From positions 3,846,896-3,910,895 of the forward strand of contig OY282377.1 of assembly GCA_958295785.1 (NCBI GenBank): a DNA stretch of 64,000 bases. Reading direction: 5' to 3'. Both the position numbers and the translations under genes were made by a program. The DNA comes from an uncultured Latescibacterota bacterium. GTDB taxonomy: Bacteria > Latescibacterota > UBA2968. Below the pieces are notes generated by a model, which worked only from the letters and a program-made list of their open reading frames with translations, was not told where the DNA came from and did no database searches. This document shows, piece after piece, positions 1,049 through 56,223 of the stretch (position 1 is the first letter of the stretch; each line of letters opens with the position of its first letter).

Positions 1049-3583
1049 ATGTTGCAAAATATTCGCAGTATCTTCGTTCTCACCCTCGCCGCGGGCCTGA
1101 TGTGGCATTGCGGCGGCGAGCGCGTGACCCAATCGCAGACCGAGACGACAGGCCCCCCGCTGGGCAAATTGACCGCACGCGGCGCATCCCAAGCCGCGGT
1201 CGTGGTCAACCTGTCGCAAGATGGCGCGCCCGTGAGCGGTGCGACAGTAGCGTTCTCGCGCTCCATTGCCGGTCAGACCGCGTCGTATCAGTGGTCTGGA
1301 ACGACGGATGAAATGGGGCGTGCGCGTGTGGAAATCGCGTCGGCCAATGTGACGGGCTACTATCTCGCCCGCGCCATGCAAGCCGGGAGCGAGATCGGTT
1401 CGTGGTCGAGCATCCCGATCAACAGCGGCTACGAGGTGATGCTCAATTTGCCTATCGGCGGAAAGGCGCGCGTGACCGCATCATCAAAAATCACGAGCGA
1501 GACCCCCATTGGCCTCGTGGTGCCGCTGACGGGCAGCCTGGCTTCGACGGGCATGACAGTAAAAAACGGCTTTGAACTCGCACGCGAGGAAATCAACCGT
1601 TCACCCCTGCTCAACGGGACAACCCTCAAATTTATCATCGAGGACGACCAGAGCACCGCAGCGGGGGCCGTTGCCGCTTACACAAAGTTGATCGATCAAG
1701 ATGGCGTGTCTGCCATCCTCGGCCCTTTTACCTCGAGCATGACCCGAGCGGCCTTTCCCATCGCCCAAGAAAACGAGGTCGTGGCGATCAGTCCCACCTC
1801 TGCCGCGCGTGGCCTCAGCGCGATAGGCGCTTACGTCTTCCGCGCCAGCCTCACTGTAGATAGGCTCATCCCCAGCGGCGTCAAAACGACCCAAGCGGCC
1901 TTGGGCTATCGGCGCGTGGCAACCATATACGACAGTGACGACGTCTTTTCCCAAAGCAGCGATGCGGTGCTCAAGGAAGCATTTATGGACAATGGCGTGG
2001 AGGTGCTGACCACCGAGACCATCCAAACCGGCGATACGGACTTTTCCGCGCAACTCATGCGGATAAATGAGCTGAATCCCGACGCCATCTTCGTCTCTGC
2101 GTTGCCCACAGAGGCGACCAATATTTTGATCCAAGGTCGGCAACTGGGTATTCCCACCAAAGTACCCTTTATCGCGAACCTGACCTTGACCCCCAGCGAA
2201 ATCCAGCGCGCGGGGGCCGCCGCCGAGGGGGCGATTGCGTTTACCGCCTGGAGCAGCACGGCGGATACCCCGGGCAATCGCGCTTTTGTCGAAAATTACC
2301 GCGCAAAATTCGGCAGTGACCCCGATGCGTTCGCCGCGCAAGCCTATACCGCGGTCCACATCTTGGCGCGCGCCATCGCCACTGCCTCATCGACCGATGC
2401 GAGCGCGATTCGGGACGCGCTGGCAAAAATCGGGAATATGGACACGGTTTTGGGTTCGTTCTCATTTGACGACAATGGCGATGGGGTTTACGATCCGGCT
2501 GTCCTGATCGTCAAGGATGGCGAACTCGAGGTTTTCAAGCCGTCGCCCAGCGTGATTTCCATTGGCCTCGTCCCGCATCTGACGGGGCCATTCGCCGAGA
2601 CCGATTTGCAAAACGCTGCGGAACTGGCTCTCGCCGAGATCGACAAGTTGCACGACAAGGCCATATTCAAGTTCATCGTCGAAGACAGCCGGAGTACCCC
2701 AGCGGGCGCGATTGCGGCTTACGACAAACTGATCGCCCAAGGCGTGCAGGCCATCCTCGGCCCTCGTAACTCAACGGTGTTCCGCGGGGCTCTTGCAGTC
2801 GCGCAAGAAAATGGGGTCGTGGCGATCAGCCCCACCTCTGCCGCGCGTGGCCTCAGCGCGATGGGGGATTATATCTTCCGCACCAGTCTGACGGTGGACC
2901 GGCTCATCCCCAGCGGCGTACAGACCACGCAAAAGGCCCTCGGCTATCGGCGCGTGGCGACAATATTCGACAGCGGGGATGCCTTTTCCCAAAGCAGCGA
3001 TGCGGTGCTCAAGGAAGCATTTATGGACAATGGCGTGGAGGTGCTGACCACCGAGACCTTCCAAACGGGCGATACCGATTTATCCGCGCAATTGACGCGC
3101 ATAAAGGAGATGAATCCCGATGCCATTTTTGTCTCGGCCCAAGCGACGGAAATGACGGAGGTTCTGATCCAGGGGCGGCAACTGGGCATTCCCAGTGAGG
3201 TGCGTTTTATTGCAAATCTGATCCTGACCCCCGAGCAAATCCAAAGCGCGGGTGCCGCCGCCGAGGAGGTAATCGTATTTACCGCATGGAGCAGCACGGC
3301 GGATACGCCGGGCAATCGCGCCTTCGTCGAGAATTACCGCGCGAAATACGGCGGCGAACCCAATGTGTTTGCCGCGCAATCTTATGCCGCGGTCTATATT
3401 CTCGCAAAGGCCCTGGGCACTGCCTCATCGACAGATGCGAGCGCGATTCGGGACGCCTTGGCGGCGACAATGGATTTGGACACAGTCTTGGGCAAATTCT
3501 CTTTTGACGCCAATGGCGACGGGATATACGACCCGACGATACTGATCGTCAAAAATGGCAGACTCGAGGTTTTCAAGCCGTAA
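1049..3583 (+). CDS. Double-domain periplasmic ligand-binding protein (branched-chain amino-acid type)
   Basis: An 844-residue exported protein. Residues 1-24 form a signal sequence ending at Cys in LMWHCGG, an unusual lipobox. Residues about 25-145 form an Ig-like or carboxypeptidase-regulatory-like beta module (DGAPVSGATVAFSRS). Two complete leucine/isoleucine/valine-binding-type domains (Peripla_BP_6) follow at about 146-490 and 497-844. Each starts with an (I)GLV..LTG strand and contains ISPTSAARGLS, the ligand-site loop of this family. The two domains are nearly identical over long stretches, for example around 1947-2022 and 2983-3059, which indicates recent internal duplication or gene conversion. 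AAAGGAGATTGTA precedes the ATG. No ABC permease or ATPase is adjacent, so a role as orphan receptor or sensor is as likely as transport. Confidence 0.8.
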   Translation: MLQNIRSIFVLTLAAGLMWHCGGERVTQSQTETTGPPLGKLTARGASQAAVVVNLSQDGAPVSGATVAFSRSIAGQTASYQWSGTTDEMGRARVEIASANVTGYYLARAMQAGSEIGSWSSIPINSGYEVMLNLPIGGKARVTASSKITSETPIGLVVPLTGSLASTGMTVKNGFELAREEINRSPLLNGTTLKFIIEDDQSTAAGAVAAYTKLIDQDGVSAILGPFTSSMTRAAFPIAQENEVVAISPTSAARGLSAIGAYVFRASLTVDRLIPSGVKTTQAALGYRRVATIYDSDDVFSQSSDAVLKEAFMDNGVEVLTTETIQTGDTDFSAQLMRINELNPDAIFVSALPTEATNILIQGRQLGIPTKVPFIANLTLTPSEIQRAGAAAEGAIAFTAWSSTADTPGNRAFVENYRAKFGSDPDAFAAQAYTAVHILARAIATASSTDASAIRDALAKIGNMDTVLGSFSFDDNGDGVYDPAVLIVKDGELEVFKPSPSVISIGLVPHLTGPFAETDLQNAAELALAEIDKLHDKAIFKFIVEDSRSTPAGAIAAYDKLIAQGVQAILGPRNSTVFRGALAVAQENGVVAISPTSAARGLSAMGDYIFRTSLTVDRLIPSGVQTTQKALGYRRVATIFDSGDAFSQSSDAVLKEAFMDNGVEVLTTETFQTGDTDLSAQLTRIKEMNPDAIFVSAQATEMTEVLIQGRQLGIPSEVRFIANLILTPEQIQSAGAAAEEVIVFTAWSSTADTPGNRAFVENYRAKYGGEPNVFAAQSYAAVYILAKALGTASSTDASAIRDALAATMDLDTVLGKFSFDANGDGIYDPTILIVKNGRLEVFKP

Positions 3584-3609
3584 ACAGGGGCAGTTGATAA
3601 GAGGTCGCC

Positions 3610-5130
3610 ATGTTGAAAAGCATTCGCAATATCGCTGTCATCGCCCTCGCCGCGGGCCTGATGTGGCACTGTGGCGGCGAGCGCGTGACCCAATCGCAGA
3701 CCGAGACGACAGGCCCCCCGCTGGGCAAATTGACCGCGAGCGATTCCGCATCGCAAGCCGTGGCGATGGTCAATCTGACGCGAGATGGCGCGCCCGTAAG
3801 CGGTGCTATCGTGGAGTTCTCGCGCTCTATCGCCGGGCGGTCAGCCTCATATCAGTGGTCCGGAATAACCGATGCGATGGGGCGTGCGCGGGTGGAGATC
3901 GCGTCGGCCAATGTGACGGGCTACTATCGGGCGCGTGCCTTACAAGACAGGAGACCGGCCGGATTGGGCGGGAGCATTAGCCGGATCGGTTCGTGGTCGA
4001 GCATCCCGATCAACAGCGGCTACGAGGTGATGCTCAATTTGCCTATCGGCGGAAAGGCGCGCGTGACCGCATCATCAAAAATCATGAGCGAGATCCCCAT
4101 TGGCCTCGTCGTATCGCTGACGGGTAGCCTTACTTCGACGGGCATTCCGATAAACAATGGCTTTGAACTCGCGCGCGAAGAAGTCAACCGCTCATCCCTG
4201 CTCAACGGGCCGCGCATCCGATTCATCATTGAGGACGACCAGAGCACCGCAGAGGGGGCAATCGCGGCTTTCAACAAGTTGATCGATCAAAACGTGTCTG
4301 TGGTCCTCGGCCCTTTTACCTCGACTATGGCCGCCGCGATTTTTCCCATCGCGCAAGAACATAGGGTGGTGGCGATCAGCCCGACCTCTAACGCGCCCGG
4401 CCTCAGCGCGATAGGCGATTTTGTCTTTCGCACCAGCCTGCCAGTGGATCGGCTTTTGCCCAATGGGATTGCGACCACGCAACAGGCCCTCGGCTATCGG
4501 CGCGTGGCAACAATACACGACAAAGACGATGTCTTTTCCCAAGGTAGCGACGCGGCGTTCAAAAAAGCATTCAGAGATAACGGCGTCGAGGTGCTGATCT
4601 CGGAAACCTTTCAAACGGGCGATACCGACTTTTCCGCGCAACTGACGCGCATAAAAGCGGCGAACCCAGACGCCATCTCCATCTCGGCTTTGCCCACCGA
4701 GATACCCGAAATTATGATCCAAGGCCGCCAACTCGGTATTCCCTTTGAGATTCCCTTTATTTGTCCCACCCTGGTCATGGGCGAAGTGCAACGCGCAGGT
4801 GACGCCGCCGAGGGGGCAATTACCATCGCGCTTTGGAGCGAAAAGGCCGATACCCCGGGCAATCGCGCCTTCATCGACAATTATCGCGCGAAATTCGACG
4901 GCGAACCCGATGCGTTTACCGCACAGGCTTATACCGCTGTCCATCTTCTAGGCAAGGCCATTGCCGATGCCCAATCGACGGAGGCGAGCGCGATTCGAGA
5001 CGCCCTATCCGCGATCCGCGATGTCCCCACGGTTTTGGGCAACTTCTCTTTCGACGATGGTGGCGACGGGATTCACAACGCGATCACCCTGACCGTCAAG
5101 AATGGCAAATTCGAGGTTTTCGATCCATAA
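3610..5130 (+). CDS. Single-domain periplasmic ligand-binding protein, paralogue of the neighbours
   Basis: A 506-residue paralogue. The first about 160 residues (signal sequence, Cys in LMWHCGG, Ig-like module) are almost identical to the genes on either side, apart from a 10-residue insertion (around DRRPAGLGGS) in the linker. One Peripla_BP_6 domain follows, with ISPTSNAPGLS at the usual ligand loop; it is more diverged than the two domains of the preceding gene. The gap to the upstream gene is 26 bases, and 13 bases separate its stop from the next ATG, so the three are probably one operon. The start has GAGGTCGCC upstream. Confidence 0.8.
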   Translation: MLKSIRNIAVIALAAGLMWHCGGERVTQSQTETTGPPLGKLTASDSASQAVAMVNLTRDGAPVSGAIVEFSRSIAGRSASYQWSGITDAMGRARVEIASANVTGYYRARALQDRRPAGLGGSISRIGSWSSIPINSGYEVMLNLPIGGKARVTASSKIMSEIPIGLVVSLTGSLTSTGIPINNGFELAREEVNRSSLLNGPRIRFIIEDDQSTAEGAIAAFNKLIDQNVSVVLGPFTSTMAAAIFPIAQEHRVVAISPTSNAPGLSAIGDFVFRTSLPVDRLLPNGIATTQQALGYRRVATIHDKDDVFSQGSDAAFKKAFRDNGVEVLISETFQTGDTDFSAQLTRIKAANPDAISISALPTEIPEIMIQGRQLGIPFEIPFICPTLVMGEVQRAGDAAEGAITIALWSEKADTPGNRAFIDNYRAKFDGEPDAFTAQAYTAVHLLGKAIADAQSTEASAIRDALSAIRDVPTVLGNFSFDDGGDGIHNAITLTVKNGKFEVFDP

Positions 5131-5143
5131 ACAGGAGGCAGTT

Positions 5144-7573
5144 ATGTTGAGCAACATTCGCAGTATCCTCGTTCTCACCCTCGCCGCGGGCCTGATGTGG
5201 CACTGCGGCGGCGAGCGCGTGACCCAATCGCAGACCGAGACGACAGGCCCCCCGCTGGGCAAATTGACCGCACGCGGCGCATCCCAAGCCGCGGTCGTGG
5301 TCAATCTCTCGCAAGATGGCGCGCCCGTAAGCGGTGCGACAGTAGCGTTCTCGCGCTCCATTGCCGGGCGGGCAGCGTCCTATCAGTGGTCTGGAACGAC
5401 GGATGAGAACGGGCATGCGCGTGTGGAGATCGCGTCGGCCAATGTGACGGGCTACTATCTCGCCCGCGCCATGCAAGCCGGGAGCGAGATCGGTTCGTGG
5501 TCGAGCATCCCGATCAACAGCGGCTACGAGGTGATGCTCAATTTGCCTATCGGCGGAAAGGCGCGCGTGACCGCATCATCAGAAATCATGAGCGAAATTC
5601 CCATTGGCCTCGTCATGTCCTTGACGGGACGAATAGCCGCGACCGGGACGACCATGAAAAATGGCCTTGAAATGGCCCTCGAAGAAATCAATCGCTCGGG
5701 CATGCTCGGCGGGACAACCCTCAAATTCATCATCGAAGACGACGGGGGCACGATAGAGGGTGCGGTTGCCGCTTACACAAAGTTGATCGAGCAAGATGAC
5801 GTGTCCGTGGTCATCGGTCCCTTTAGCTCAAGCGCGACCAAAGCGGCCTTTCCCATCGCCCAAGAAAATGGAGTGGTGGCGATCAGCCCGACCTCTGCGG
5901 CGCGTGGCCTCAGCGCGCTCGGGGATTATCTCTTCCGCATCAGCCTCACTGTTGACGCGCTGTTGCCCGGCGGCGTTGCAACAACGCAAAAGGCCCTCGG
6001 CTATCAACGGGTGGCGACCATCATCCAAGCTGCCGATGCCTTTTCCCTCAGCAGCGACGAGGTGTTCAAAGACGCCCTTCGCGCAAACGGCGTGGAGGTG
6101 CTGACCACCGAGAGCTTCCAACCGGATGGGGTCGACGACTTGTCCGCGCAATTGACGCGCATCAAAGCCCTGAATCCCGACGCCATCTTTATCTCGTCCC
6201 AGCCGCCCGGGCGGGTTCAAATTCCGATTCAAGCCCGGCAACTCGGCATTTCCAAGGACATTCCCTTCCTCGTCACCCTGATGACCATAGACGACGTCCT
6301 GCAAGCAGATCCGGCGGCCGAGGGTTCAATTAGTTTTACGACCTGGTCCAACAAAGCCGACCCACCGGGCAACCGCGCTTTTGTTGCGAAGTTCCGGGAG
6401 AAATACGGCTATGAACCCGCCGCGTTCACGGCGCAATCCTATGCCTCGCTCTACATTCTGGCGCAGGCCATTGCCGATGCCAAATCCACCGATGCCCACG
6501 CCATTCGAGCCGCGCTGACCGCGATTGATCTATCGACCGTTTTGGGCCAATTCTCGTTTGATGCCAATGGCGACGCGGTTTATGACCCGATCATCCTGAC
6601 CGTCGAGAACAGTAAATTTGAGGTTTTTGATCCGCAGATGAGCACGGGCGAAAAACGCCTGCTCAATATGGGCTTCTACGCCTTTTTCGAGCCGCTCAGT
6701 TACAGCGCAAATCCCGACCCGATGGCCCCTGGATTTAAGGAACACCGCGGCTATGAAGCGGATCTGTTGACCGCGCTCGAAGCGATGAAAGGCGAGAATT
6801 TGGCTTTTGTTCGACACCCGATAGCCGAGTGGCCCAATATCTGGTTGAAACCCACGGAACCACAATACGATCTGGTCGGCGGCGGGATCACGATTCTCGA
6901 TTCTCGAACCCGAGACGCCATGGGCAACCAAGTGATCACCTTTACGTCGGGCCATATCACCTTTCGCCAGTCGCTTCTGGTGCGCGCCGACGATGCACAA
7001 CGCCTTGCCAGCCATAGCGATTTGACCAGCGATGTGCGCGTGGGGGTTCTCGCCGGCACCACGGGAGAGGCCCGCCTGCTGGAACTGACGGGTCTCGTCA
7101 ATGACATGGGCATGCTGGCCGCCGGTGTGCGCGTGGAAACCGCGCAGGACACTGTGGTTGCCGATGGCAGCGCGGATTACGTCATTACCTCTGCGGGGGC
7201 ATCTCCTGTGTTGATGGGGCGTCGCCTCCTTCACCCACCTTCGGAAACCATGCCGCAAGTGGTTTATTTGGGCGACGAGACCGGCGAAACCGCGTTGCTC
7301 AACGCCCTGCGCGATGGCAACATAGACGCCGTCGCCCGAGGCGAGATTGGCAACCGCACCGCCGTTCAAAATTTCGGCAACGCCTTTGCGGTGACAGCCC
7401 TTGACCCTCAAATTGAACTCGGTGGATTTGCAGTGTCAGCGGAAAATACCGCGCTGCTCACCTTCCTCAATGAGCGGATCAACTATCTGACGGACAATCG
7501 CCGCATCGGCTATGCAGAATGGCTGGCCGATCCCACGGTGTTCACGCGCCGCGCCGAGATGTGGCCGCGTTAG
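5144..7573 (+). CDS. Hybrid ligand-binding protein: Peripla_BP_6 domain plus SBP family-3-like domain
   Basis: An 809-residue exported protein. I place the start at the ATG at 5144, which follows ACAGGAGGCAGTT and matches the N-termini of both paralogues; an in-frame ATG at 5102 would only add residues overlapping the previous gene. The order is signal/LMWHCGG, Ig-like module, Peripla_BP_6 domain (to about residue 490), then a C-terminal domain of about 310 residues. That last domain resembles extracellular solute-binding protein family 3: an N-terminal strand with a GYEADLL helix, a central VGVLAGTTGE hinge, and a terminal NERINYLTDNRRIGYAEWL helix. The third paralogue has thus replaced the second Peripla_BP_6 unit with an unrelated binding fold. 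A strong terminator follows. Confidence 0.8.
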   Translation: MLSNIRSILVLTLAAGLMWHCGGERVTQSQTETTGPPLGKLTARGASQAAVVVNLSQDGAPVSGATVAFSRSIAGRAASYQWSGTTDENGHARVEIASANVTGYYLARAMQAGSEIGSWSSIPINSGYEVMLNLPIGGKARVTASSEIMSEIPIGLVMSLTGRIAATGTTMKNGLEMALEEINRSGMLGGTTLKFIIEDDGGTIEGAVAAYTKLIEQDDVSVVIGPFSSSATKAAFPIAQENGVVAISPTSAARGLSALGDYLFRISLTVDALLPGGVATTQKALGYQRVATIIQAADAFSLSSDEVFKDALRANGVEVLTTESFQPDGVDDLSAQLTRIKALNPDAIFISSQPPGRVQIPIQARQLGISKDIPFLVTLMTIDDVLQADPAAEGSISFTTWSNKADPPGNRAFVAKFREKYGYEPAAFTAQSYASLYILAQAIADAKSTDAHAIRAALTAIDLSTVLGQFSFDANGDAVYDPIILTVENSKFEVFDPQMSTGEKRLLNMGFYAFFEPLSYSANPDPMAPGFKEHRGYEADLLTALEAMKGENLAFVRHPIAEWPNIWLKPTEPQYDLVGGGITILDSRTRDAMGNQVITFTSGHITFRQSLLVRADDAQRLASHSDLTSDVRVGVLAGTTGEARLLELTGLVNDMGMLAAGVRVETAQDTVVADGSADYVITSAGASPVLMGRRLLHPPSETMPQVVYLGDETGETALLNALRDGNIDAVARGEIGNRTAVQNFGNAFAVTALDPQIELGGFAVSAENTALLTFLNERINYLTDNRRIGYAEWLADPTVFTRRAEMWPR

Positions 7574-7621
7574 CCCCTTAAAAGCTGATGCCTGATGTAG
7601 CATCGGCACTTGCCATACAAA

Positions 7622-7659
7622 AAGCCCGGGTTCATAGTGAACTCGGGCTTGATTTTTTT
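7622..7659 (+). terminator. Rho-independent terminator after the binding-protein cluster
   Basis: A 13-base stem (AAGCCCGGGTTCA paired with TGAACTCGGGCTT, one mismatch) with loop TAG, followed by GA and a run of seven T. It closes the plus-strand cluster 49 bases after its last stop codon and may also act on the convergent mcr operon. Confidence 0.85.
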
Positions 7660-7677
7660 GGATGACCTTTCCTCCGC

Positions 7678-7710
7678 GCCATCCGCGTCCTCTGCTCAAT
7701 CCGCGATCCG
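7678..7710. repeat. Dispersed 'ATCCGCG' repeat
   Basis: A short run of ATCCGCG-containing units (CCATCCGCGTCC, CAATCCGCGATCC). The same motif occurs near 25363-25385, 48133-48172 and 56348-56384, mostly between genes and beside the GC-rich palindromic repeats. I read it as one of two interspersed repeat families of this genome. Confidence 0.5.
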
Positions 7711-8946
7711 TCAGAGATGTTTCAAAATGTCTTTAACGCTACCTTTGGGATCGGTGACATCAAATGGAAAGCAAGACAAAGACAAGTCCTCATCAAACTC
7801 GTACCGCAACATCTCTCGAAATTGCGCTGTCTTGGGATAGACGAGCGCGACCTGTTTGCAGCGATACTTTTTGCCATAAGCGAACAACTGGTACACATCG
7901 GCTTGGTTAATGCCGTGCTTGCTGTCATTGCCGTTTTCGTTAACGCGCTTCCATTTGGTGTCGAGGATAAATTTTGTTTTGCCATCGGACATCAGGCTGA
8001 TATCCGGTTTCATAAAAAAAACATCGTTGCCCCGAATGCGGGCTAACGGTTCTTTCGGCCCCTGCTCGCGCACGGAAAACTGTCGCTGATACCGCCGAAA
8101 ACACGTTGCGACAAAATCCTCAAACACATCCTCCATCGGAAACAACAAGGTCTGGTTGACGTGTTTGCCGGCAAACGTGGTCAGGCCGCGACCAAACAGA
8201 AACAGCCCGACCCACTGCATCACCGCGTCGTAATGGGACATCGAGCGATCTACCCGGTGCTGTTGCCAGTCGCTTTCAAGTTGGGTTGACGTGGGAATAT
8301 CGGCAAAACAGATACGCAACTGATGGAGCAACTGTTGATTTCTCGACTGTCGTGCGAAACCGATCAGTTTTTGGATGGTGCTGTGAATCAGGCGATTGGC
8401 CGGGCGGTTGGCGGTGAACTCGTCATAGCCGACGTAAAACCGCGCACGGTTGACCGCATTTTCACGAATGTGCTGCGGAAACAGGATCCGCCCGCGCAGG
8501 CAAGGCAGGTTGTCTTCCACCGGTTGATAATTGCGGGCCAGGCCGCGTTGCGTCAGCAGAACGAGGTTGTTCAAAAACAGGTGGACAAACACTTCCAGCA
8601 TATTGAAACGGCGCACGGCGTTGATGTGACTCGCGTTGAACTGCGCCATTTTCTTGAACCCGCGCCAAGTCCGCAGCATGTTGAAGAATACTTTTTTGCT
8701 TTCTTCCTCGTCTTTGGCAAAATCTACCTTCGGCAGAATTTCGAGCACGGTTCCCTTGCGCGTTTCGATAATGCCGACGTAGTTTTGTGCGTGTAGCCCG
8801 TTGTTTTTCAACACCAAAACAGGTCGGTGGTTGCCCTGTCCATCCGTCTGATTGGCAAGGGCAAAGTCCTTCAGATCCCTCAATTCATCTCGGGCGAGAC
8901 CCGCCAGTTGTTCATATTCTTTGACTTTGATAACGGACATCGTCAA
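7711..8946 (-). CDS. mcrC: McrC, nuclease subunit of a McrBC-type modification-dependent restriction system
   Basis: About 410 residues, the usual length for McrC/McrBC family proteins. The C-terminal half carries the PD-(D/E)xK nuclease signature: KPDISL followed by FILDTKWK (Asp ... Asp-x-Lys). McrC is known to join an McrB ring and cut DNA near methylcytosine. The annotated start is a TTG whose last bases overlap the TGA of mcrB (TTGA); an ATG six bases further in is an equally good start. Either way the two genes are translationally coupled. No frameshift is visible, so this copy is probably functional. Confidence 0.9.
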   Translation of the reverse strand: MTMSVIKVKEYEQLAGLARDELRDLKDFALANQTDGQGNHRPVLVLKNNGLHAQNYVGIIETRKGTVLEILPKVDFAKDEEESKKVFFNMLRTWRGFKKMAQFNASHINAVRRFNMLEVFVHLFLNNLVLLTQRGLARNYQPVEDNLPCLRGRILFPQHIRENAVNRARFYVGYDEFTANRPANRLIHSTIQKLIGFARQSRNQQLLHQLRICFADIPTSTQLESDWQQHRVDRSMSHYDAVMQWVGLFLFGRGLTTFAGKHVNQTLLFPMEDVFEDFVATCFRRYQRQFSVREQGPKEPLARIRGNDVFFMKPDISLMSDGKTKFILDTKWKRVNENGNDSKHGINQADVYQLFAYGKKYRCKQVALVYPKTAQFREMLRYEFDEDLSLSCFPFDVTDPKGSVKDILKHL

Positions 8947-11063
8947 GCGTCCTGTTCGGTTTTATCGGCGTCGCCTTGTTCATCTTTTTCGTAGATCGCA
9001 CGGTAACTTTTGGGGTCTTGCCATTTGTCAGAATCAGCCAGCAATTCATAAAAGTTGCGATCCTGATCCATCAAGTCGGATTCCAATAGCAAATTTTCAG
9101 GGGAGACTTTTGAAATAAATCCGTTCTCATTCAAAACCAGCTTGATTTTCTCATAGTTATCGTAAAAGTATTCCTGCAACAGCGGGATGATTTTGGTCTT
9201 GAACGCTTTCTCCAGATCATCCACGCTGTCAACATTGATGAAATACGTGTGTCCGATCTGATGCTCCCGATCAAATAGGAAACGGATGCGGTCATTCATT
9301 GTAGCGAGCAGTTCCTGACAATTCACGCCTTCAACATTCTCACTGATACATTCATGGTTTGAATTCGGCATCATCTCGACGAACTCAAACCGCCGCCTCA
9401 GTGCGGTATCCAACAGGGCGATAGAGCGGTCGGCGGTATTCATCGTGCCGATGAGGTACAGGTTGTCCGGGATGCCGAATAACTTTTTGGAATAGGACAG
9501 CGTAACGGTTGCTTCGTCCTCTCCGCCGAGCCGTTTGGAGGGTTCAATCAGCGTGATCAACTCGCCGAAAATTTTGGCGATGTTGCCGCGATTGATCTCG
9601 TCAATGATCAGGACATAATTTTGATCCTCGTTTTTATCGGCCCGATCAGCGATTCGCTTGAAAACACCCGCTGACAATTCGTATTCAACATTTTTGTTTT
9701 CATCCGACAGAACAGGTCTGATGCCCTCAATAAAATCCTCGTAAGCAAAGTTTTGATGAAACGTCACCATTTCAATCTGGCCTTGCTCTTTCAATTCATC
9801 AAACCGTCCCTTTACATCTTCACGGCCTTCGCGTTCAATCTCCGCCAAAGCCTTGCCCTCGATAATCGCCAGCGCGTGATAGACGGTGTTCCAAGTTTTA
9901 CCGGTTCCCGGCGGGCCGAAAAGAATTTGGTTCAAAGGATGATTCTCAGGTTCAGGGCCGTTTTCTATGGAATTTCTTGTCAGTTTTTTTGTCAAGTCAA
10001 ACGAAGGCTTGTAGCCCTCCATTTTTTCAAAAGCCGAATACGTTCCGCTACCGGCCTCATTAAAACCTAGCGAATCCGTTAGGCCATCCAATTGACTTGT
10101 CGATTTGTTTATCCACAAGACATGAATTGCACCATTTTTGTCAAATCCACCTACTTCGGCATAGTCATTTTTTTTCACTATACCAATCCCTCTTCCTTTT
10201 TGCTTTCCTGTTCTAACTAGAATAACATCCCCTGGCTTGGGTTCTGTCAGGGGATATTTTTTTTTGTTTCCTTCTCCTCCAGTATAAACTTTGTTATTGT
10301 TTTTGAAATCATCCCAATAATCGGTTCCCTTGTTATATACATTAGTGCTTATCTGAAAAAAATTACTGCTCACTTCAGATTTTTGATCAAATTGCAATCC
10401 TAAAAACATATTGATTTCATAAGGCTGACACCCCGGGAACGCCTTCTTAAGTTTTTCCAAAATAGACAGATACTCCCCATAACCACCATCTTTTTTTAGC
10501 CTTTTTATTTTACTCGACAGTGTCGAATCCGGCAGATACTCTGATACAGTCTCAGTTAACGTATCCACGGGAAGGAAATATGTCGGGTTTATCAAAAACA
10601 GAACTTGTGTCAATTTCGGAACGGCAACGTTTGGTATATCCAAAACTTTCTTAAAATCACTTGGATCAATTGTCGGCTTATCCTTTACTGCCTGCCGGAA
10701 CAAACGCCAAAGCAAATCAGGATGAAAGATTTTCTGATTATGAAAAAGAACTGAAGCATCCGACCGGGGAGTGGGAAAGACATAGTAATCATCTATACTG
10801 GCATTCGGGAGCGGACTTTCAATCTCAAATACATCTTGAATATCGTCGTACACTGGTTTCCTTTGGTTACTAGTGCTCTTTTGAGCCAAAAAATAAAAGA
10901 ACGACAAGGGATCAATATTCTCATCGCCATATTGAAGCAAAGGGGGATTTTCATTTTTCCAGTCCATTTGCTTTGCCTTGTTAACCAGATATTCTTTGCC
11001 TTTTGTCTCAATTTTTTTTCCCAACTCTTGAAACCAAGGTACCCAGCTATAAATTTCTTTCAT
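8943..11063 (-). CDS. mcrB: McrB-type AAA+ GTPase, long form
   Basis: A 706-residue protein. Its AAA+ domain holds Walker A GPPGTGKT at about residue 383, Walker B/DEINR in LIIDEINRGNIAKIF, and MNTADRS, the McrB-type guanine-recognition motif. The 380-residue N-terminal region is specific to this copy and contains a GDVILVRTGKQKGRGIGIV segment that looks like a small beta-barrel target-recognition domain; I cannot name it. The ATG follows GGAGATAGTCAA. It forms an operon with mcrC. Its AAA domain is nearly identical to that of the second mcrB at 11386-12810, while the N-terminal parts are unrelated. Confidence 0.9.
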   Translation of the reverse strand: MKEIYSWVPWFQELGKKIETKGKEYLVNKAKQMDWKNENPPLLQYGDENIDPLSFFYFLAQKSTSNQRKPVYDDIQDVFEIESPLPNASIDDYYVFPTPRSDASVLFHNQKIFHPDLLWRLFRQAVKDKPTIDPSDFKKVLDIPNVAVPKLTQVLFLINPTYFLPVDTLTETVSEYLPDSTLSSKIKRLKKDGGYGEYLSILEKLKKAFPGCQPYEINMFLGLQFDQKSEVSSNFFQISTNVYNKGTDYWDDFKNNNKVYTGGEGNKKKYPLTEPKPGDVILVRTGKQKGRGIGIVKKNDYAEVGGFDKNGAIHVLWINKSTSQLDGLTDSLGFNEAGSGTYSAFEKMEGYKPSFDLTKKLTRNSIENGPEPENHPLNQILFGPPGTGKTWNTVYHALAIIEGKALAEIEREGREDVKGRFDELKEQGQIEMVTFHQNFAYEDFIEGIRPVLSDENKNVEYELSAGVFKRIADRADKNEDQNYVLIIDEINRGNIAKIFGELITLIEPSKRLGGEDEATVTLSYSKKLFGIPDNLYLIGTMNTADRSIALLDTALRRRFEFVEMMPNSNHECISENVEGVNCQELLATMNDRIRFLFDREHQIGHTYFINVDSVDDLEKAFKTKIIPLLQEYFYDNYEKIKLVLNENGFISKVSPENLLLESDLMDQDRNFYELLADSDKWQDPKSYRAIYEKDEQGDADKTEQDA

Positions 11064-45997: not shown

Positions 45998-48157
45998 ATG
46001 GAAACTGCTGTTTTAGTAACGGGTGGCGCGGGCTATATTGGCAGCCATGTGGTTCGGCGTCTGTTGGAAGACCATCGCCGGGTCGTGGTGCTGGACGACT
46101 TGTCGACGGGCAACCGGGAAGCGATCACCTTGTTTGAACAAGTGTATGGGCCAAAGCAATTTTGTTTCGAGCACGTCAGTTTGCTCGACCGCGATGCTCT
46201 GGCCTCTGTTTTTGATCGCCACGATTTTTGCGGCATCATTGACTTGGCCGCCAAAACCCTGACAGGGGAATCTCAGAAAATGCCCTGCCGGTATTTTGCA
46301 AATAATGTGATTGCTTTTCAAAACTTGTTGGACATTGGGTTGCCCATTGTGAAATCGTCAACCGCTGCAATTTACGGCGAACCCCGCGCAGAACACATCC
46401 CATTGAAAGAGGATTATCCGCAAAAATGGATCGCAGACGGGGGCTTTGAACACAGCCAGTTGATGCCCGCCGCGGTCGATTTTGAGACCCTTTTGCAGTG
46501 GTATGAAAAGCACATCGCGTTCAAATTGCGCGAAGGAGATATCGCCCTGCTGAAAATGCCCCTGAATGTCTATGGCATCACAAAAATGATGGGTGAACGC
46601 ATGTTGTTCTATGCCGAGCGACAAGGCGGCGCGCCTTATGTGGTGTTGCGCTATTTTAATGCCGCGGGCGCGGACCCCTCGCGTTTGATCGGCGAAGACC
46701 ACACACCAGAGACGCACCTGATCCCCCGGGTTTTACAAGTGGCACTGGGGCAACGCGACAAAATCGCCTTGTTTGGCGACGATTACGCGACGCCCGACGG
46801 CACGGCTGTGCGCGATTATCTTTCTGTGGTGGAATTGGCCGATGCCCATATCATGTGTTTGGATAGGTTGTTGCAAGGCGGGCAGTCTGCAACTTACAAT
46901 CTCGGCAGGGGCTATGGCTGGAGCGTTGGGGAGATTGTGCAAGCCGCACGCGACGTGACCGGCCATGCGATCCCCACAGCGATTGGCGCGCGTCGAAGGG
47001 GCGACCCGGCAACGCTGATTGCGGCCCCGAGTCGCATTCGGCGCGAACTGGGATGGGTTGCGCGGGAATCGATCCATGAAATTTTGGAATCCGCATGGCA
47101 CTGGCATCGGCTTCACCCAAATGGGTATCGGATTGTGCAAGAGGAACGATTCAATCCATTTTGGAACAGGTGGGTCAATATCGCGGCCCATCGCCGAAAT
47201 CGCCCCTGGCGCGGGGAAATACAGCAGATGGACGATTCTGCTGATCGCGCATATCATCCCGCCTGCTATCTCTGCCCCGGCAACACGCGCGCCCGCGGCG
47301 ATGTGAACCCCGATTACAACGGCGTGTGGACATTTGAAAACGATTTCCCCACGCTGGAATTGGATGCCTATCAAACGCAAGAACAGTTGGGGCCCTATGC
47401 GTCGCGCACTGCTCGGGGCACATGCGAGGTCGTGGTCTATAACCGCGATCACTCGCAACGGTTATCTACCCTGCCGTTAGACGCACTCGTCCGCGTGATG
47501 GACGCATGGGCAAATATTTACGAGCGGTTGGGGAAAAAGGCCGAGATCGCTTATCCCCTAATTTTTGAGAATCGCGGCGCGGTGATGGGCAATTCACAGC
47601 CGCATCCGCACGGGCAGGTCTATGCTTATGGCGCCCTTCCCGACCTGATGGTGAAGCCGCAACTGGCGCAGTTCGCGTCCCACCGCGAGAAAACCGGCCG
47701 CTGTTTTGTCTGCGACGCCAACAGCGTTGAATCCCAAGATGGATGGCGCGTTTTGTTTGATCGCCCGCATGCACTGGGTTATGTTCCGTTTGCCGCGCAA
47801 TTTCCCTACGATGTGATCATCATACCCAAGGCGCACGCGGCGAGTCTGTTGGATTTGCAAGCGGCACAACGACGCGACTTGGCAACGGGTTTGCGCGATG
47901 TCCTCGTCGGTTTAGACCACTTGTTTGCCGCGCCCTATCACTACACCTTGGCCCTGATGCAAGCCCCCACAGATGGCGTGGATTACGGTTATCACATGCA
48001 AATCCACATCGCGTCCTTCCTGCGCGGGCCTGGCCTGCGAAAACATGTGGTGGGCACAGATATTTTTGGCAATCTCATCAATCCCTCGGATCCAAATGTG
48101 ACAGCAGAAGAAATCCGATGGGCGATGAGAAAGGCGGATCGCGGATTAAGCAGATGA
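45998..48157 (+). CDS. Fused UDP-glucose 4-epimerase / galactose-1-phosphate uridylyltransferase
   Basis: 719 residues with two complete enzymes. Residues 1-375 are GalE: NAD-binding GGAGYIG at 9-15, KSSTAAIYGEP (Ser/Thr at 120-122), catalytic YGITK with Tyr at 192 and Lys at 196, FNAAGADPS and GTAVRDYLSVVELADAH. About 45 extra residues lie between the Ser/Thr and Tyr motifs compared with ordinary GalE (normally about 25 apart). Residues about 380-719 are GalT: FNPFWNRWVNIAAHR, Zn-site CYLCPGN, IFENRGAVMGNSQPHPHGQ with the catalytic His of HPHGQ at 536-540. The chain performs two Leloir steps; galK follows. The last codons lie in a dispersed repeat. Confidence 0.93.
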   Translation: METAVLVTGGAGYIGSHVVRRLLEDHRRVVVLDDLSTGNREAITLFEQVYGPKQFCFEHVSLLDRDALASVFDRHDFCGIIDLAAKTLTGESQKMPCRYFANNVIAFQNLLDIGLPIVKSSTAAIYGEPRAEHIPLKEDYPQKWIADGGFEHSQLMPAAVDFETLLQWYEKHIAFKLREGDIALLKMPLNVYGITKMMGERMLFYAERQGGAPYVVLRYFNAAGADPSRLIGEDHTPETHLIPRVLQVALGQRDKIALFGDDYATPDGTAVRDYLSVVELADAHIMCLDRLLQGGQSATYNLGRGYGWSVGEIVQAARDVTGHAIPTAIGARRRGDPATLIAAPSRIRRELGWVARESIHEILESAWHWHRLHPNGYRIVQEERFNPFWNRWVNIAAHRRNRPWRGEIQQMDDSADRAYHPACYLCPGNTRARGDVNPDYNGVWTFENDFPTLELDAYQTQEQLGPYASRTARGTCEVVVYNRDHSQRLSTLPLDALVRVMDAWANIYERLGKKAEIAYPLIFENRGAVMGNSQPHPHGQVYAYGALPDLMVKPQLAQFASHREKTGRCFVCDANSVESQDGWRVLFDRPHALGYVPFAAQFPYDVIIIPKAHAASLLDLQAAQRRDLATGLRDVLVGLDHLFAAPYHYTLALMQAPTDGVDYGYHMQIHIASFLRGPGLRKHVVGTDIFGNLINPSDPNVTAEEIRWAMRKADRGLSR

Positions 48158-49539: not shown

Positions 49540-50307
49540 TCAAAGCCGGTGCATGTGGAATCCACCGTCAACTGGAATGGCCGCGCCGGTTGTGAAATCG
49601 AAATATCCAAGCCCAATGGCCGCGACAGCTTTGCCGATATCTTCGGGTTGTCCCCACCTGCGAATGGGGGTCAGGCCATCGGCGATCAGGGCGTCGTATT
49701 TTTTTTTGACTGGCCCTGTCATATCGGTCTGAATAATCCCCGGTTGAATTTCATTGACGGGAATGCCGTGTTCTGCGAGCCGGACGGCGAACAAGCGCGT
49801 CATCATGCTCAGTCCTGCTTTCGAGACGCAGTATTCGCCGCGCGCTGTTGACGCAGTATAAGCCGATATGGACGTGATGACGACAATGCGCGGCGCCTGA
49901 ATTTTCCCTTGTTCTTTGAGGGCGATCATGTGATTTGCCGCATATTGGGTCAAAAAATAAGGGCCTTTGAGGTTGGTATCCATCACTTCTGCATAGCTTT
50001 CGGGCGTGGCTTCGAGAATGTCGGCGCGTACCCGTGGGGCAATGCCGGCGTTGTTGACGAGCATATCGAGGCGGCCAAAGGCGGTGAGCGTTGTATCCAC
50101 GAGGCGTTTGCCGTCTTCGATGCGGGTTATATCGCCCTGACAAATCCGGACTTTTCGCCCGCGTTCCCGAATGCCGCCCGCGGTTTCTTCTGCGGCCACT
50201 CGGTTGCCCGCGTAGTTGACCAAAATGTCGTAGCCCACATCGGCGAGGCAAAACGCAATGCCCCTGCCAATCCCCCTGCTGGATCCCGTAACGAGTGCTG
50301 CTGGCAT
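49540..50307 (-). CDS. SDR-family oxidoreductase (3-oxoacyl-ACP-reductase-like)
   Basis: 255 residues; ATG at 50307 after AAAGGGAGGGCAC. Classical SDR motifs: TGSSRGIGRGIA (cofactor loop), NNAG in MLVNNAGIAPR, catalytic Ser in ITSISAYTAS and YCVSK (Tyr-x-x-x-Lys), then IQPGIIQTDMT. The Arg in the first loop and usual FabG similarity suggest NADPH. Substrate uncertain, since FabG-like SDRs act on many sugars and acids. It faces galK convergently with 21 bases between stops. Confidence 0.9.
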   Translation of the reverse strand: MPAALVTGSSRGIGRGIAFCLADVGYDILVNYAGNRVAAEETAGGIRERGRKVRICQGDITRIEDGKRLVDTTLTAFGRLDMLVNNAGIAPRVRADILEATPESYAEVMDTNLKGPYFLTQYAANHMIALKEQGKIQAPRIVVITSISAYTASTARGEYCVSKAGLSMMTRLFAVRLAEHGIPVNEIQPGIIQTDMTGPVKKKYDALIADGLTPIRRWGQPEDIGKAVAAIGLGYFDFTTGAAIPVDGGFHMHRL

Positions 50308-50531
50308 GTGCCCTCCCTTTGCTGTTTGTCCAAACGTTCTCCCCATAAAATACCACATTTAGCGACAAGTGCAAAGTAGAGGCATGCCTTTTGCATTTCG
50401 CCGATTCGGTTGACAAACGGGCTTCCCGCGATTATACATGTGCTATCGCCCTTTTTATCGCAATAATGCTTGTAACCTATCGCATGCTCGCCGAAGAATC
50501 CATTGGGGATTCCTTTTGAGAGGAGAAGATC

Positions 50532-52322
50532 ATGGGACTCGATTCAGACCGAAAACGGCTATCGCAAGCCAAGATGCCCGCATGGTTGCAGCGCGATCTT
50601 CAAATGAACGAGATGATCACGGTGTACCACCTATCGGATCGAGAAGGCACCCCCGCTTACGACGTCTATTGTGCTCTGATTCCATCGGACCAAATTGAAC
50701 GAGTACTTTCTGATCCAAACTGGGACCTTTCGCTCCGCGATGGTATTCCCTGTGCGAATGTGTGCTACGAGGGCGGAGAGGAGCACGCGGAATATCTCCG
50801 CTACGGCGTTAAAAACGGAATTGAGCCTTTGATCATGAACCGTAGCTTCTATGAAATGCGGGATGGCTACCGAGAAATATCCGAGGAGTTTCGCCTTTTC
50901 CACAATCTATATCACGATAGAAAGACGGATAAATACATCAAAATTGATGACGCGGGTCATGAAAATGTAGTGGCTGTCGTCGAGCCGAACCGCGTTCAGA
51001 TAAGGCTCAAGGAGATTCGCCAGTTCTTGGCGATCAAAGAAATGTACCTATCCATCCAATTCAATCGTCTGGAACGCTCGAGGCACTCGCTAAAAGAACT
51101 CGGGCTTAAGACAGGTGAACGCGATCATCGGGACGATCTCAGGTATTGGAGACACCACTATGGCGACTTTGACAGTTTGGGCAACGCTCAAGCATTTAGC
51201 CGACTGTGGGGAAAGCGACTCATCAAACCCCTGCCAAAGTCCAAAAGCGGCATGGGGGGATTTGCCGAAGAACCCGAGCAAAAGCATGTAGAATTTATCA
51301 TTGGCGTCGATGAGAATGGAGATGAAATAACCTATACCTCCGATCCTGATGCGCTGGCAAATTATTTTGACGCCAATCCCTCTGCCCCCCATCACCTCAC
51401 CCCTGTACATTTTCGCAAACAGGTGTTAGACAAATACGACCAACAGCCCAGTAAATACACAGTAGAGGATGCGTTTCTGCGCTGTGGCTCCCTTTGGGGT
51501 ATGGATATTGACAACCACCACGCCGACAGCGTCTGCGCGTGGCTGGGCGATCTGGGGCGAGATCTCCCCTATGCGGAACAACTGCACTGGCGGGCGCACA
51601 ATATCCCCCCCGCCGGTGGTGTGAGTCAGATCCACTTGAAGCGTCAGATCTTGGCTGAGTCAGCAAATTCAGCGCAACCGGATCACTTGTTTAAGCAACG
51701 TTATCGGGATTTACAAGCGGCCTGTAAGGAATCGCTTGGTTGGCATTTATTGTTGCCGCTAGATATTGGCGACGAGTACCACTTCAAAAGTTTGAGGCTT
51801 CCGGCCGCTGATGAACCGCGCGATTTTGATGAATTGGTTTTGAGCCTCGCAAAAATACTCATCGATTCCCTAAACGAGAGACGTCTAAATACGCTAATTC
51901 CCGATGAGCAGAAAGCGGAACTCAAAGGCAGTATTGCACGTCTCGACGCGGTCCTCAGTTCCCGCGCTGCTGAAGGTGCCGCCGATCATATCGTTTTTCT
52001 GCGAAAACTACAGAGCCTGCGTTCCAGTAGTGTAGCCCATCGCAAAGGTCGCAACTATCAAAAAATTGCTAGGGACTTCGGCATTGAAAGTCAGAGCTTA
52101 CGCGATGTGTTCACCCAAATTGTCCGGCGGGCTTTAGGCGTTTTGGATTACTTCATTCTTCTCGTGCGGAGCGGCCAAATTGACCCTGAAATCATTAAAC
52201 GAAATAGCGTAAAAGAAGGATACGCGATTCTCAACGAGATGGTTGGATTCTGCGAATCGGACCAAACTGATGGCTCTGTCAATCACGATGAAGTCATTTA
52301 TGAACTTCGGTCAAAACCATGA
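50532..52322 (+). CDS. Large unrecognised protein with a C-terminal HEPN-like motif
   Basis: 596 residues, ATG at 50532 after GAGAGGAGAAGATC. No membrane segment or ATP-binding motif. The N-terminal 290 residues are polar and beta/alpha mixed (ITVYHLSDREGTPAYDVYCA); residues 140-200 look helical. The C-terminal about 200 residues are helical and contain RSSSVAH (Arg 497, His 503), fitting the Rx4-6H pattern of HEPN RNases, followed by DVFTQIVRRALGVLDYFILL. I know no family name. The gene overlaps the next ATG (ATGA) of a PIN-domain gene, so the two were translated together. HEPN function is a hypothesis from motif and context. Confidence 0.55.
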   Translation: MGLDSDRKRLSQAKMPAWLQRDLQMNEMITVYHLSDREGTPAYDVYCALIPSDQIERVLSDPNWDLSLRDGIPCANVCYEGGEEHAEYLRYGVKNGIEPLIMNRSFYEMRDGYREISEEFRLFHNLYHDRKTDKYIKIDDAGHENVVAVVEPNRVQIRLKEIRQFLAIKEMYLSIQFNRLERSRHSLKELGLKTGERDHRDDLRYWRHHYGDFDSLGNAQAFSRLWGKRLIKPLPKSKSGMGGFAEEPEQKHVEFIIGVDENGDEITYTSDPDALANYFDANPSAPHHLTPVHFRKQVLDKYDQQPSKYTVEDAFLRCGSLWGMDIDNHHADSVCAWLGDLGRDLPYAEQLHWRAHNIPPAGGVSQIHLKRQILAESANSAQPDHLFKQRYRDLQAACKESLGWHLLLPLDIGDEYHFKSLRLPAADEPRDFDELVLSLAKILIDSLNERRLNTLIPDEQKAELKGSIARLDAVLSSRAAEGAADHIVFLRKLQSLRSSSVAHRKGRNYQKIARDFGIESQSLRDVFTQIVRRALGVLDYFILLVRSGQIDPEIIKRNSVKEGYAILNEMVGFCESDQTDGSVNHDEVIYELRSKP

Positions 52323-52729
52323 TTTTTGTCGATACCGGTGCATGGATCGCCCTTTCCAATTGAAGGGATCAACATCACGACAACGCTTCTGCGATTTATA
52401 GGACCTTAGCACAGCAGAACGCGCAACTCTTGACGACAGATTACGTGATTGATGAAACCATCACCCGGCTCAGATATGACGTGAGCCACGCAGTAGCAGT
52501 TCAGTTTCTCAACCACATTGAACGCGCTGAAGAAACAGGTGCTTTAACCGTCGTAACAGTTGATGGCCCTTTGTTTCAAGAAGCCAAGCGGCTTTTTCGC
52601 CAATACGATTCGGCAAGGTTGTCATTCACGGATTGCACCAGTTTTGCGGTCTGTCAGACGCACAACATCTCTGAGGCTTATGCCTTTGATCAACATTTTG
52701 CGATGATGGCGAGAACCTTGCTCAAGTAG
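52319..52729 (+). pseudogene. PIN-domain gene with a TGA at codon 15
   Basis: The ATG overlaps the stop of the 596-codon gene (ATGA). It reads MIFVDTGAWIALSN, then TGA (52361-52363), then in the same frame RDQHHDNASAIYRTLAQQNA and on to VTVDGPLFQEAKRLFRQYDS, LSFTDCTSFAV and AYAFDQHFAMM. These are the PIN acidic positions (D4 in VDTGAW, D in SFTDCTS, FDQHF). Only the one stop breaks it; a CGA-to-TGA change would explain it. Confidence 0.85.
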
Positions 52730-52789: not shown

Positions 52790-53451
52790 GAAGCCCTAAC
52801 ATAAAGAAATCAAGCGTCTGAAACAGATGAGAGAACAGCCGATGGACAGGAATGCCTCATGGATGTCCGCTCTGCGCTCGTCGCGCACCCGCAGTCTGCG
52901 GAACTGGCGGAGCCAGGCTAGAGTCCGCTCAACCACCCACCGGTACACGCCCAACCCGCTGCCATGCTCTGTACCCCGCCGGGCGATCACCGGCGAGATG
53001 TGGCGCGCACGCAGGGAGGCACTGTCCACGCAGGCACGAGACCCGTCCAGGCCGTCGGCCGCTCGCAGTTTGGACAACAGCAGATGATGAAGCCGCTCCC
53101 ACACGCCGGCGTCATGCCATGCCTTCAGACGACGCCAGCAGGTCATCCCGGAACCACACCCCATCTCTTGGGGCAACTGCTCCCACGGGATGCCGCTCTT
53201 CAGGACGAATAGAATGCCGGTCAACGCCTTGCGGTCGTCAATGCGCTTGCGTCCGGGGTAGCGGAATCGTCTCGGCTTGGGAACCGGCAAAAAGGGTTGG
53301 ACCTTTTCCCAGAGTTCATCGCTTACGAGTGGTTTGGTCATCTGTTCCTCCTCGCCCGGTTGCAGATGCCGGGCATGGACGTTGTAAGGGTTGGGCTGAG
53401 AAGAAAATCGGCCTTTCACAAATCCATGTCAACTCTTTATGTTAGGACTTC
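52790..53451 (-). mobile_element. Internally deleted IS5-family element, 662 bp
   Basis: Inverted repeats GAAGCCCTAACATAAAGA and TCTTTATGTTAGGACTTC (one mismatch, pairing extends a few bases outward into TTT/AAA). The transposase gene lacks its centre. The ends are the parents of the two MITEs at 28859-28973 and 62082-62195. Confidence 0.85.
52796..53341 (-). pseudogene. IS5-family transposase with internal deletion
   Basis: 181 codons from the ATG at 53341 (GAGGAGGAACAG upstream). The start is normal (LVSDELWEKVQPFLPVPKPR, then GILFVLKSGIPWEQLPQEMG, RRLKAWHDAGVWERLHHLLL). After CVDSASLRARH the frame jumps to IARRGTEHGSGLGVYRWVVE and LAWLRQFRRLRVRDERR. The stretch that should contain the second catalytic Asp is missing: about 80 codons compared with normal members of about 260 residues. 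The frame is preserved, but the enzyme cannot be active. Confidence 0.85.
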
Positions 53452-55432: not shown

Positions 55433-55460
55433 AACAGGCTCTTTGGTTGCCTCAAATTTT
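55433..55460 (+). repeat. 28-bp direct repeat, right copy
   Basis: Second copy of the sequence at 52762-52789. It continues into the natural upstream region of the next gene (AATTGCGAAAGG). Confidence 0.9.
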
Positions 55461-55479
55461 AATTGCGAAAGGAAAACGG

Positions 55480-56223
55480 ATGCCTCGTGGTCGGTGTCAT
55501 TTCGCGCTGTTGCTCAAATTGCAGGCGCGTCTCGCGCACGAATTGCCCGAACTGGGTGCCTTAACCGCGCAGTATTTGCCGGACTTTCTGGGTGGTTCTA
55601 CGGCGCCCGATGCAATGCGTTCGCTGGGCAGTTTGGGCAAATACGGATCGCATTTTTACACGGAAGACCGCCGCGAGACCTGGGGCAAATCCGTGTCGGG
55701 CATGTTTGAAACGCATCCCGATCTGGCCGATTATCAGACATTGGCTGTACCTGACCGCGCGTTGCTGATGGGATACATTTCGCACCTGACGGCGGATGAA
55801 GCGTTTCGAGATGTGGTGACCATTCGCGTCCACGGCATTGAAGACTGGCGGCCCATTATCTGCGGGTTGTGGTCTTATGTGGATGAACTGCCCATCGATC
55901 ACCCAAACCTCGGCGGTGTGCTGGATCGATTTGATGGCCGCGGACAGGTGGGCTTTATCGACCGCAAAACAGCCGCTCTGTTTTTGAGCCGCGCCCGCGG
56001 TTGGGCCGAAAGCGCGGATCCCTTTGTTCACGAGCGGGTCTTTCTCGAGATGACGGGACAGGCCATGTCCGATGCGGATGTGAAAAAGCGTCTCGCTGAA
56101 AACCGAGCACTGGCAGAGGCGTTTTTCGATGCGCGTGTCAAATCGCGCTTTGTCGCTGAGGCCCTCGCACGCGCACATGATGAGATCGAGAAATTTGTCA
56201 ATCGGGCGTATGTCAAAAAATAG
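55480..56223 (+). CDS. Zinc-dependent phospholipase C family protein
   Basis: 247 residues; ATG at 55480 after GCGAAAGGAAAACGG. The N-terminal region fits the Zn_dep_PLPC family: LPDFLGGSTAPDAM, GKYGSHFYTED (metal-binding His), METHPDL-like FETHPDLADY and LLMGYISHLTADEAFRDVV (His/Asp ligands). No signal peptide is evident, so the role is probably intracellular or uncharacterised. It follows the right 28-bp repeat and ends before a repeat cluster. Confidence 0.75.
   Translation: MPRGRCHFALLLKLQARLAHELPELGALTAQYLPDFLGGSTAPDAMRSLGSLGKYGSHFYTEDRRETWGKSVSGMFETHPDLADYQTLAVPDRALLMGYISHLTADEAFRDVVTIRVHGIEDWRPIICGLWSYVDELPIDHPNLGGVLDRFDGRGQVGFIDRKTAALFLSRARGWAESADPFVHERVFLEMTGQAMSDADVKKRLAENRALAEAFFDARVKSRFVAEALARAHDEIEKFVNRAYVKK

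What the first reader, a model, noticed from the sequence alone, without database searches (positions are those of the whole stretch)
50532..52729. Candidate new two-gene RNase/defence module: 596-residue HEPN-like protein coupled to a PIN protein
The large protein has no family I recognise, but its C-terminal helical part carries RSSSVAH, an Rx4-6H motif like HEPN ribonucleases. Its stop overlaps the start of a PIN RNase gene (ATGA). Pairing a large HEPN-like protein with a PIN nuclease is unusual. The PIN half is now stopped by one TGA, and a mobile element entered just downstream, as in decaying defence islands.
Basis: partly seen in the sequence, partly recalled or inferred. Interest (0 to 1): 0.62.

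Follow-up and report, generated by a model that had tools for sequence, protein, structure and literature searches.

The report
Defence protein carrying a toxin's antidote
A large, previously unclassified bacterial defence-type protein ends in a short tail that looks like the antidote of the RNA-cutting toxin encoded right behind it, and the same tail-plus-toxin unit is found attached to other defence enzymes, which suggests a way for cells to become addicted to keeping their defences.

Summary
ORF 50532-52322 (596 aa) overlaps a PIN gene by ATGA (start 52319); the PIN frame has one TGA at codon 15. The protein belongs to a family with no Pfam or PDB match, found in many bacterial phyla and one archaeon: a beta-rich N-terminal part plus an HEPN-like helical domain (R497 invariant in 55/55, H503 in 53/55).

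Residues ~553-596 are a separable tail. Among 65 relatives outside the window, 18 carry the tail and 17 of those have an intact PIN gene directly behind; none of 47 tail-less relatives has a PIN. The same tail, again followed by PIN or its remnant, ends a type ISP restriction enzyme, a DUF2806 protein and a free 76-aa gene; a related tail ends an Eco57I-type enzyme. It resembles the C-termini of ordinary antitoxins preceding PIN toxins; AlphaFold leaves its end disordered.

Best reading: a VapBC-like toxin-antitoxin pair whose antitoxin is fused to a defence protein, probably making loss of the defence gene toxic. In this genome the toxin is dead and the tail kept. Binding and toxicity are untested. 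New variant of a known kind.

The parts
50532..52322 (+). 596-aa protein of an uncharacterised family: beta-rich part, HEPN-like domain and antitoxin-like tail
   Evidence: Intact ORF; no Pfam, NCBIfam, PADLOC or PDB sequence match; 65 relatives; AlphaFold2 pLDDT 87.7
50532..51662 (+). N-terminal beta-rich part, residues 1-377
   Evidence: Predicted secondary structure; invariant EEFRLFH and QIRLKEIRQFL stretches
51663..52187 (+). HEPN-like helical domain, residues 378-552
   Evidence: Separate AlphaFold2 model pLDDT 90.7, pTM 0.88; HepT toxins are the most probable of the 50 listed PDB matches but with E 0.69 and above
52020..52040 (+). R497-SSSVA-H503 motif (Rx5H)
   Evidence: R in 55/55, H in 53/55; R at the end of helix 483-498, H in the loop after it
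52188..52319 (+). C-terminal antitoxin-like tail, residues ~553-596, core DGSVNHDEVIYELRSK
   Evidence: On 18 of 65 relatives and on unrelated proteins, always just before PIN or PIN remnants; residues 572-596 disordered in the model
52319..52729 (+). PIN (VapC-like) toxin gene, frame stopped by TGA at 52361-52363
   Evidence: PF01850; nearest solved structure of the intact orthologue is VapC20, E 1.1e-11; intact in orthologues
52796..53419 (-). IS4/5-type transposase gene inserted behind the module
   Evidence: PF13340 E 7.9e-26; absent from the orthologous loci
49540..50358 (-). Short-chain dehydrogenase gene, conserved left boundary of the locus
   Evidence: PF13561; same neighbour in G004, G005, G007 and at the empty sites of G006 and G008
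55447..56223 (+). Conserved right-boundary gene (MPRGRCHF...)
   Evidence: Same neighbour in 14 of 15 family genomes; directly follows the left-flank genes at empty sites

Best explanation
This is a toxin-antitoxin pair of VapBC type in which the antitoxin is not a small DNA-binding protein but the last ~45 residues of a large HEPN-like defence-type protein. The disordered tail is made just before the PIN toxin from the overlapping reading frame, wraps the toxin and blocks it. If the large protein is lost or destroyed, for example by deletion or by a phage countermeasure, the tail disappears and the PIN RNase is freed to stop growth. So the tail-toxin cassette works as a guard or addiction lock on the defence gene it is fused to. 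Shown here: modularity of the tail, its strict coupling to PIN, its likeness to ordinary PIN antitoxins, and repeated loss of toxin with the tail kept. Inferred: binding, neutralisation, toxicity, a defence role for the body, and the guard function. In this genome the toxin is inactivated, so only the antitoxin-tailed protein remains.
For: 17 of 18 tail-bearing relatives have an intact PIN directly behind, 0 of 47 without tail (Fisher p 1e-14, not corrected for relatedness). A tail profile built only from the body tails gave 10 hits at E<=1 among 4,865 ORF pieces, 9 different ORFs, and every one lies on the ORF directly before a PIN (three of these are weak, E 0.44-0.89). The tail ends unrelated proteins: type ISP enzyme, DUF2806 protein, free 76-aa protein; a related tail ends an Eco57I-type enzyme in this genome. 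Alignment breakpoints fall at the body/tail junction. Small antitoxins before related PINs on plasmids overlap them in the same way and end in a similar HD..LYG. Toxin lost with tail kept in several cases, the reverse never seen. Tail end disordered in the model. Intact PINs under purifying selection, dN/dS 0.08-0.36.
Against: No binding, toxicity or phage assay exists. The tail-antitoxin likeness rests on a short stretch and is weak in sequence for ordinary antitoxins (E 0.4-0.9 or tiny search sets). The tail label needs only about 2 changes on the body tree, so the 17 cases are not independent events. None of 30 other type ISP loci had tail or PIN within the stretch held, so fusions to that enzyme are rare. 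The defence role of the body is from neighbourhood only.
Confidence: 0.7

Rival explanations
1. Plain toxin-antitoxin hitchhiker: the tail is a real antitoxin, but the fusion has no purpose for defence; the cassette just uses a well expressed host gene as carrier and stays by being addictive.
For: Carriers are varied; toxin often decays without visible harm to the carrier; most of the family lacks the cassette.
Against: Carriers seen are mostly defence enzymes (type ISP, Eco57I-type, DUF2806 beside SIR2/NACHT genes), not random genes, though the sample is small.
Confidence: 0.4
2. Two-effector abortive infection system: the HEPN-like domain and the PIN are both RNases and the body senses infection and releases or activates PIN.
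For: HEPN-like motif and fold; active-site acids of PIN conserved in intact copies; body relatives lie in defence settings.
Against: Most body relatives have no PIN; HEPN motif is degraded in truncated Poribacteria copies whose tail is kept, one with an intact PIN.
Confidence: 0.25
3. The tail is only a linker or a translational-coupling device and does not touch the toxin.
For: The genes overlap by ATGA, which alone can couple translation.
Against: The tail is conserved at protein level across unrelated carriers and resembles antitoxin C-termini; in G004 the body and PIN do not overlap (TAATG) yet the tail is conserved.
Confidence: 0.08

Closest known systems
VapBC toxin-antitoxin systems (PIN toxin, nearest solved VapC20)
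   Same: PIN toxin with the conserved acids, antitoxin-like gene directly upstream with a few bases of overlap, disordered C-terminal tail, toxin lost more easily than antitoxin
   Different: Antitoxin is a ~45-residue tail on a 596-aa protein rather than a small DNA-binding protein
HEPN superfamily proteins, especially ApeA (beta-rich N-terminus plus HEPN)
   Same: Beta-rich N-terminal part followed by a helical domain with an R...H motif at the end of helix 3; an ApeA-family gene sits directly upstream of a relative in Actinokineospora
   Different: No significant profile match to ApeA or to any Pfam HEPN family; many members lack N, D or H after the arginine and have S
CreTA, the RNA toxin-antitoxin guard of CRISPR-Cas (reviewed in PMC12737573)
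   Same: Loss of a defence component would free a toxin, so the defence is addictive
   Different: There the guard is RNA and controlled by Cascade; here it would be protein and fused in cis to the defence protein
Panacea and other promiscuous antitoxin domains (PMC10440598)
   Same: A toxin-neutralising element is shuffled among proteins
   Different: Panacea is a folded domain paired with many toxins; here a linear tail stays with one toxin family and changes carriers

Membership tests
VapBC toxin-antitoxin | PIN toxin with four conserved acidic residues | tested here: met
   D5, E46, D105, D124 in intact orthologues; PF01850. The window copy is interrupted at codon 15
VapBC toxin-antitoxin | Antitoxin gene directly upstream in the same operon | tested here: met
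   ATGA overlap in window and most relatives
VapBC toxin-antitoxin | Small antitoxin with an N-terminal DNA-binding domain | tested here: not met
   596-aa protein with beta-rich and HEPN-like parts, no DNA-binding family found
VapBC toxin-antitoxin | C-terminal antitoxin tail neutralises the toxin | not testable with these tools
   Needs expression or binding assay; homology and coupling only
[quoted passage not shown]
   R497 at end of helix 483-498, H503 in loop; 55/55 and 53/55
HEPN superfamily | Four-helix up-and-down fold | tested here: inconclusive
   Model of good confidence; HepT the most probable of the listed PDB matches (prob 0.60, TMt 0.47) but E 0.69
HEPN superfamily | Significant profile match to a known HEPN family | tested here: not met
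   No HEPN family among the hits of 55 members scanned against Pfam
HEPN superfamily | Metal-independent RNase activity | not testable with these tools
   Needs biochemistry
ApeA | ApeA_NTD1 domain (PF18862) plus ApeA HEPN | tested here: not met
   No Pfam hit; hhalign against 12 ApeA proteins aligns only the motif region, E 0.31
Type ISP restriction-modification operon | Type ISP enzyme gene next to the body | tested here: not met
   None beside the window copy; present upstream in G004, G005 (fragment) and Caldilineaceae L095

The most novel reading that the evidence does not exclude
A mobile tail-plus-PIN cassette attaches itself to the 3' end of varied defence genes, turning each defence protein into the antitoxin of its own guard toxin, so that losing or disabling the defence kills or arrests the cell. 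This would be a protein-based, in-cis counterpart of CreTA that is not tied to one defence type.
Probability: 0.4. Interest if true: 0.8.

Novelty: new variant of a known kind. Interest (0 to 1): 0.64.

Why it matters
Why defence genes persist when they are costly, and what most toxin-antitoxin pairs are for, are long-standing questions. If a defence protein carries the antidote of a neighbouring toxin, the two questions have one answer that can be tested directly: remove the tail or the carrier and see whether the toxin strikes. The finding also gives a simple sequence signal (antitoxin tail on a large ORF just before a PIN gene) with which other guarded defence genes can be searched for, and it brings to light a widespread protein family with an HEPN-like domain that has no entry in Pfam.

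Tried and rejected
Recoded TGA: rejected because TGA ends the overlapping body gene and other broken PIN genes in the genome have TAG. Single-sequence scans of viral and genome contigs found nothing; only the alignment query reached the family. Viral structure library: nothing. PDB fold search with the whole protein: no match at E<=0.001; best is Avs3 (8dgc_B, E 0.056, prob 0.99) over 206 columns, not localised, so no claim is made. Membership of ApeA: not met. Phage records: no relative. Other type ISP loci: no tail or PIN in 30 loci, but most stretches held only about 1.5 kb of flank, so a tail one gene further on would be missed. A search for papers describing antitoxin tails fused to restriction enzymes found none in the open library; subscription journals and preprints are not covered.

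Full report
What is there. The window holds an intact 596-aa ORF (50532-52322) whose stop overlaps the start of a PIN gene (ATGA, PIN start 52319). The PIN frame is interrupted once, by TGA at 52361-52363, and then continues to 52729. The part after the stop is a Pfam PIN domain. An IS4/5-type transposase gene follows on the other strand. The broken PIN aligns with the intact copies at its acidic residues, and its dN/dS against them is 0.18-0.29, the range seen among intact copies, so it broke recently or the stop is a sequencing error.

The family. The protein matches nothing in Pfam, NCBIfam, PADLOC or the sequences of the PDB. An alignment query of a collection of species genomes found 65 relatives, in Latescibacterota (apparently the phylum of the window), Poribacteria, Chloroflexota, Planctomycetota, Pseudomonadota, Cyanobacteriota, Actinomycetota, Bacillota and others, and in one Methanosaeta genome bin. 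AlphaFold2 gives a good model (pLDDT 87.7): a beta-rich N-terminal part, a helical domain, and a last stretch, 572-596, without structure.

The HEPN question. The helical domain modelled alone has pLDDT 90.7. R497 is invariant in 55 members and H503 is present in 53; R lies at the end of a helix and H in the loop after it, as described for HEPN domains in PMC3710099, and a near-invariant acid (D433) lies in the preceding core helix. The most probable PDB matches among the 50 listed are HepT toxins (prob 0.41-0.60), but the E-values are 0.69 and above and no Pfam HEPN model matches. A profile comparison with ApeA aligns only the motif, E 0.31. I therefore call the domain HEPN-like and not a proven member.

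The tail. Relatives fall into two sorts: some match the query to residue 596, others stop near 550. A profile of the last ~45 residues hits 18 of the 65, and 17 of these have an intact PIN gene directly behind; the eighteenth, L108, has a deletion remnant of PIN. None of the 47 tail-less relatives has a PIN in the DNA held, up to 8 kb on each side (Fisher p 1e-14, which ignores kinship). On a tree of the bodies the tail label needs about two changes, so the association is strong but rests on few events within this family.

The tail on other proteins. The same tail ends a type ISP restriction enzyme in G034, followed by an intact PIN; a DUF2806 protein in G002, followed by a PIN stub; and a free 76-aa protein in G031, followed by PIN. 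In the window's own genome a related tail ends an Eco57I-type enzyme followed by a PIN with one TGA, and a near-duplicate of that gene followed by a PIN stub. In Poribacteria three short ORFs keep only the HEPN-like part and the tail; one of them is followed by an intact PIN. Aligned to G004, the similarity of G002 and of G034 jumps from the type ISP gene to the tail region; in G002 it resumes at about residue 550 of the body, so the body is the piece that is exchanged or missing.

Likeness to antitoxins. A tail profile built only from the body tails was run against 4,865 ORF pieces, from PIN loci collected without regard to tails plus background sequence. All ten hits at E<=1 lie on ORFs directly in front of a PIN, including three weak hits (E 0.44-0.89) to ordinary small genes there. 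Small genes before related PINs on plasmids of Salinibacter and Microcystis overlap the PIN by four bases and end in a similar HD..LYG. The PIN itself is closest in the PDB to VapC20. These short matches are suggestive, and the strong ones belong to the tail family proper.

Asymmetry. Tail kept with toxin lost or broken: the window, two Eco57I-type genes in this genome, L108, G002, and L183/L184. Toxin kept with tail lost: none seen in this family. This is what one expects if the tail is the antitoxin.

Setting. The locus is a variable site. In G001, G006 and G008 the right-boundary gene directly follows the conserved left neighbour and the module is absent. In G004 and in Caldilineaceae L095 a type ISP gene lies directly upstream of the body; G005 has a fragment of one. 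In G002 the site holds type ISP, SIR2, NACHT and DUF2806 genes. Tail-less relatives sit in a type I restriction locus (L017), behind an ApeA-family gene in Actinokineospora, and as the first gene after gmtX in a gamma-mobile-trio island on a Pseudomonas plasmid. These are defence settings, though many relatives have no such neighbour.

Mechanism. The most likely reading is a VapBC-type pair with the antitoxin carried as a tail by a defence-type protein. Steps shown: modularity, coupling to PIN, likeness to antitoxin ends, asymmetry of loss. Steps inferred: binding, toxicity, defence role, guard effect. The nearest functional parallel I found is CreTA, which makes CRISPR-Cas addictive (PMC12737573). 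I found no report of this arrangement in the open library.

Verdict. Observation confirmed; interpretation partly supported; new variant of a known kind. The toxin in this particular genome is dead, which lowers the interest of the window copy but not of the family.

Noticed in passing
G000:C1:5289486-5290020 minus (L083, L163) and C1:1458312-1458425 plus (L165): Two near-duplicate genes of one Eco57I-type enzyme (the Pfam scan was run on the first) in the window's own genome, each with an antitoxin-like tail and a broken PIN gene behind; in the first the PIN has TGA where relatives have Trp.
   Followed up: partly
L142 and L137 (Actinokineospora): An ApeA-family gene lies directly upstream of the body relative in L142, and a similar one in L137, so the two may form a pair.
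   Followed up: partly
L166 (Pseudomonas syringae plasmid pPma4326F) 5881-7461: A 35% identical relative is the first gene after gmtX in a gamma-mobile-trio island.
   Followed up: no
L189-L195 (Poribacteria): Small ORFs with one or two DPLLALAGTL repeats and the second tail type, several with HsdS-like or HsdM-like genes beside them and some followed by PIN.
   Followed up: no
G002:C19 (L084) 1113-10641: A defence island of type ISP, SIR2-like, NACHT and DUF2806 genes at the site where relatives carry the 596-aa protein.
   Followed up: partly
G004, G005 and G007 loci, behind PIN; also G003 at a contig end: A 69-aa RelB/Phd-like gene (PF18506, E 1.3e-7) follows PIN and is missing in the window, where the IS and a 686-aa membrane-protein-like ORF lie instead.
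   Followed up: no
window 45998-48157: A 719-aa ORF that looks like a GalE-GalT fusion, followed by galK; recognised by eye, not tested.
   Followed up: no
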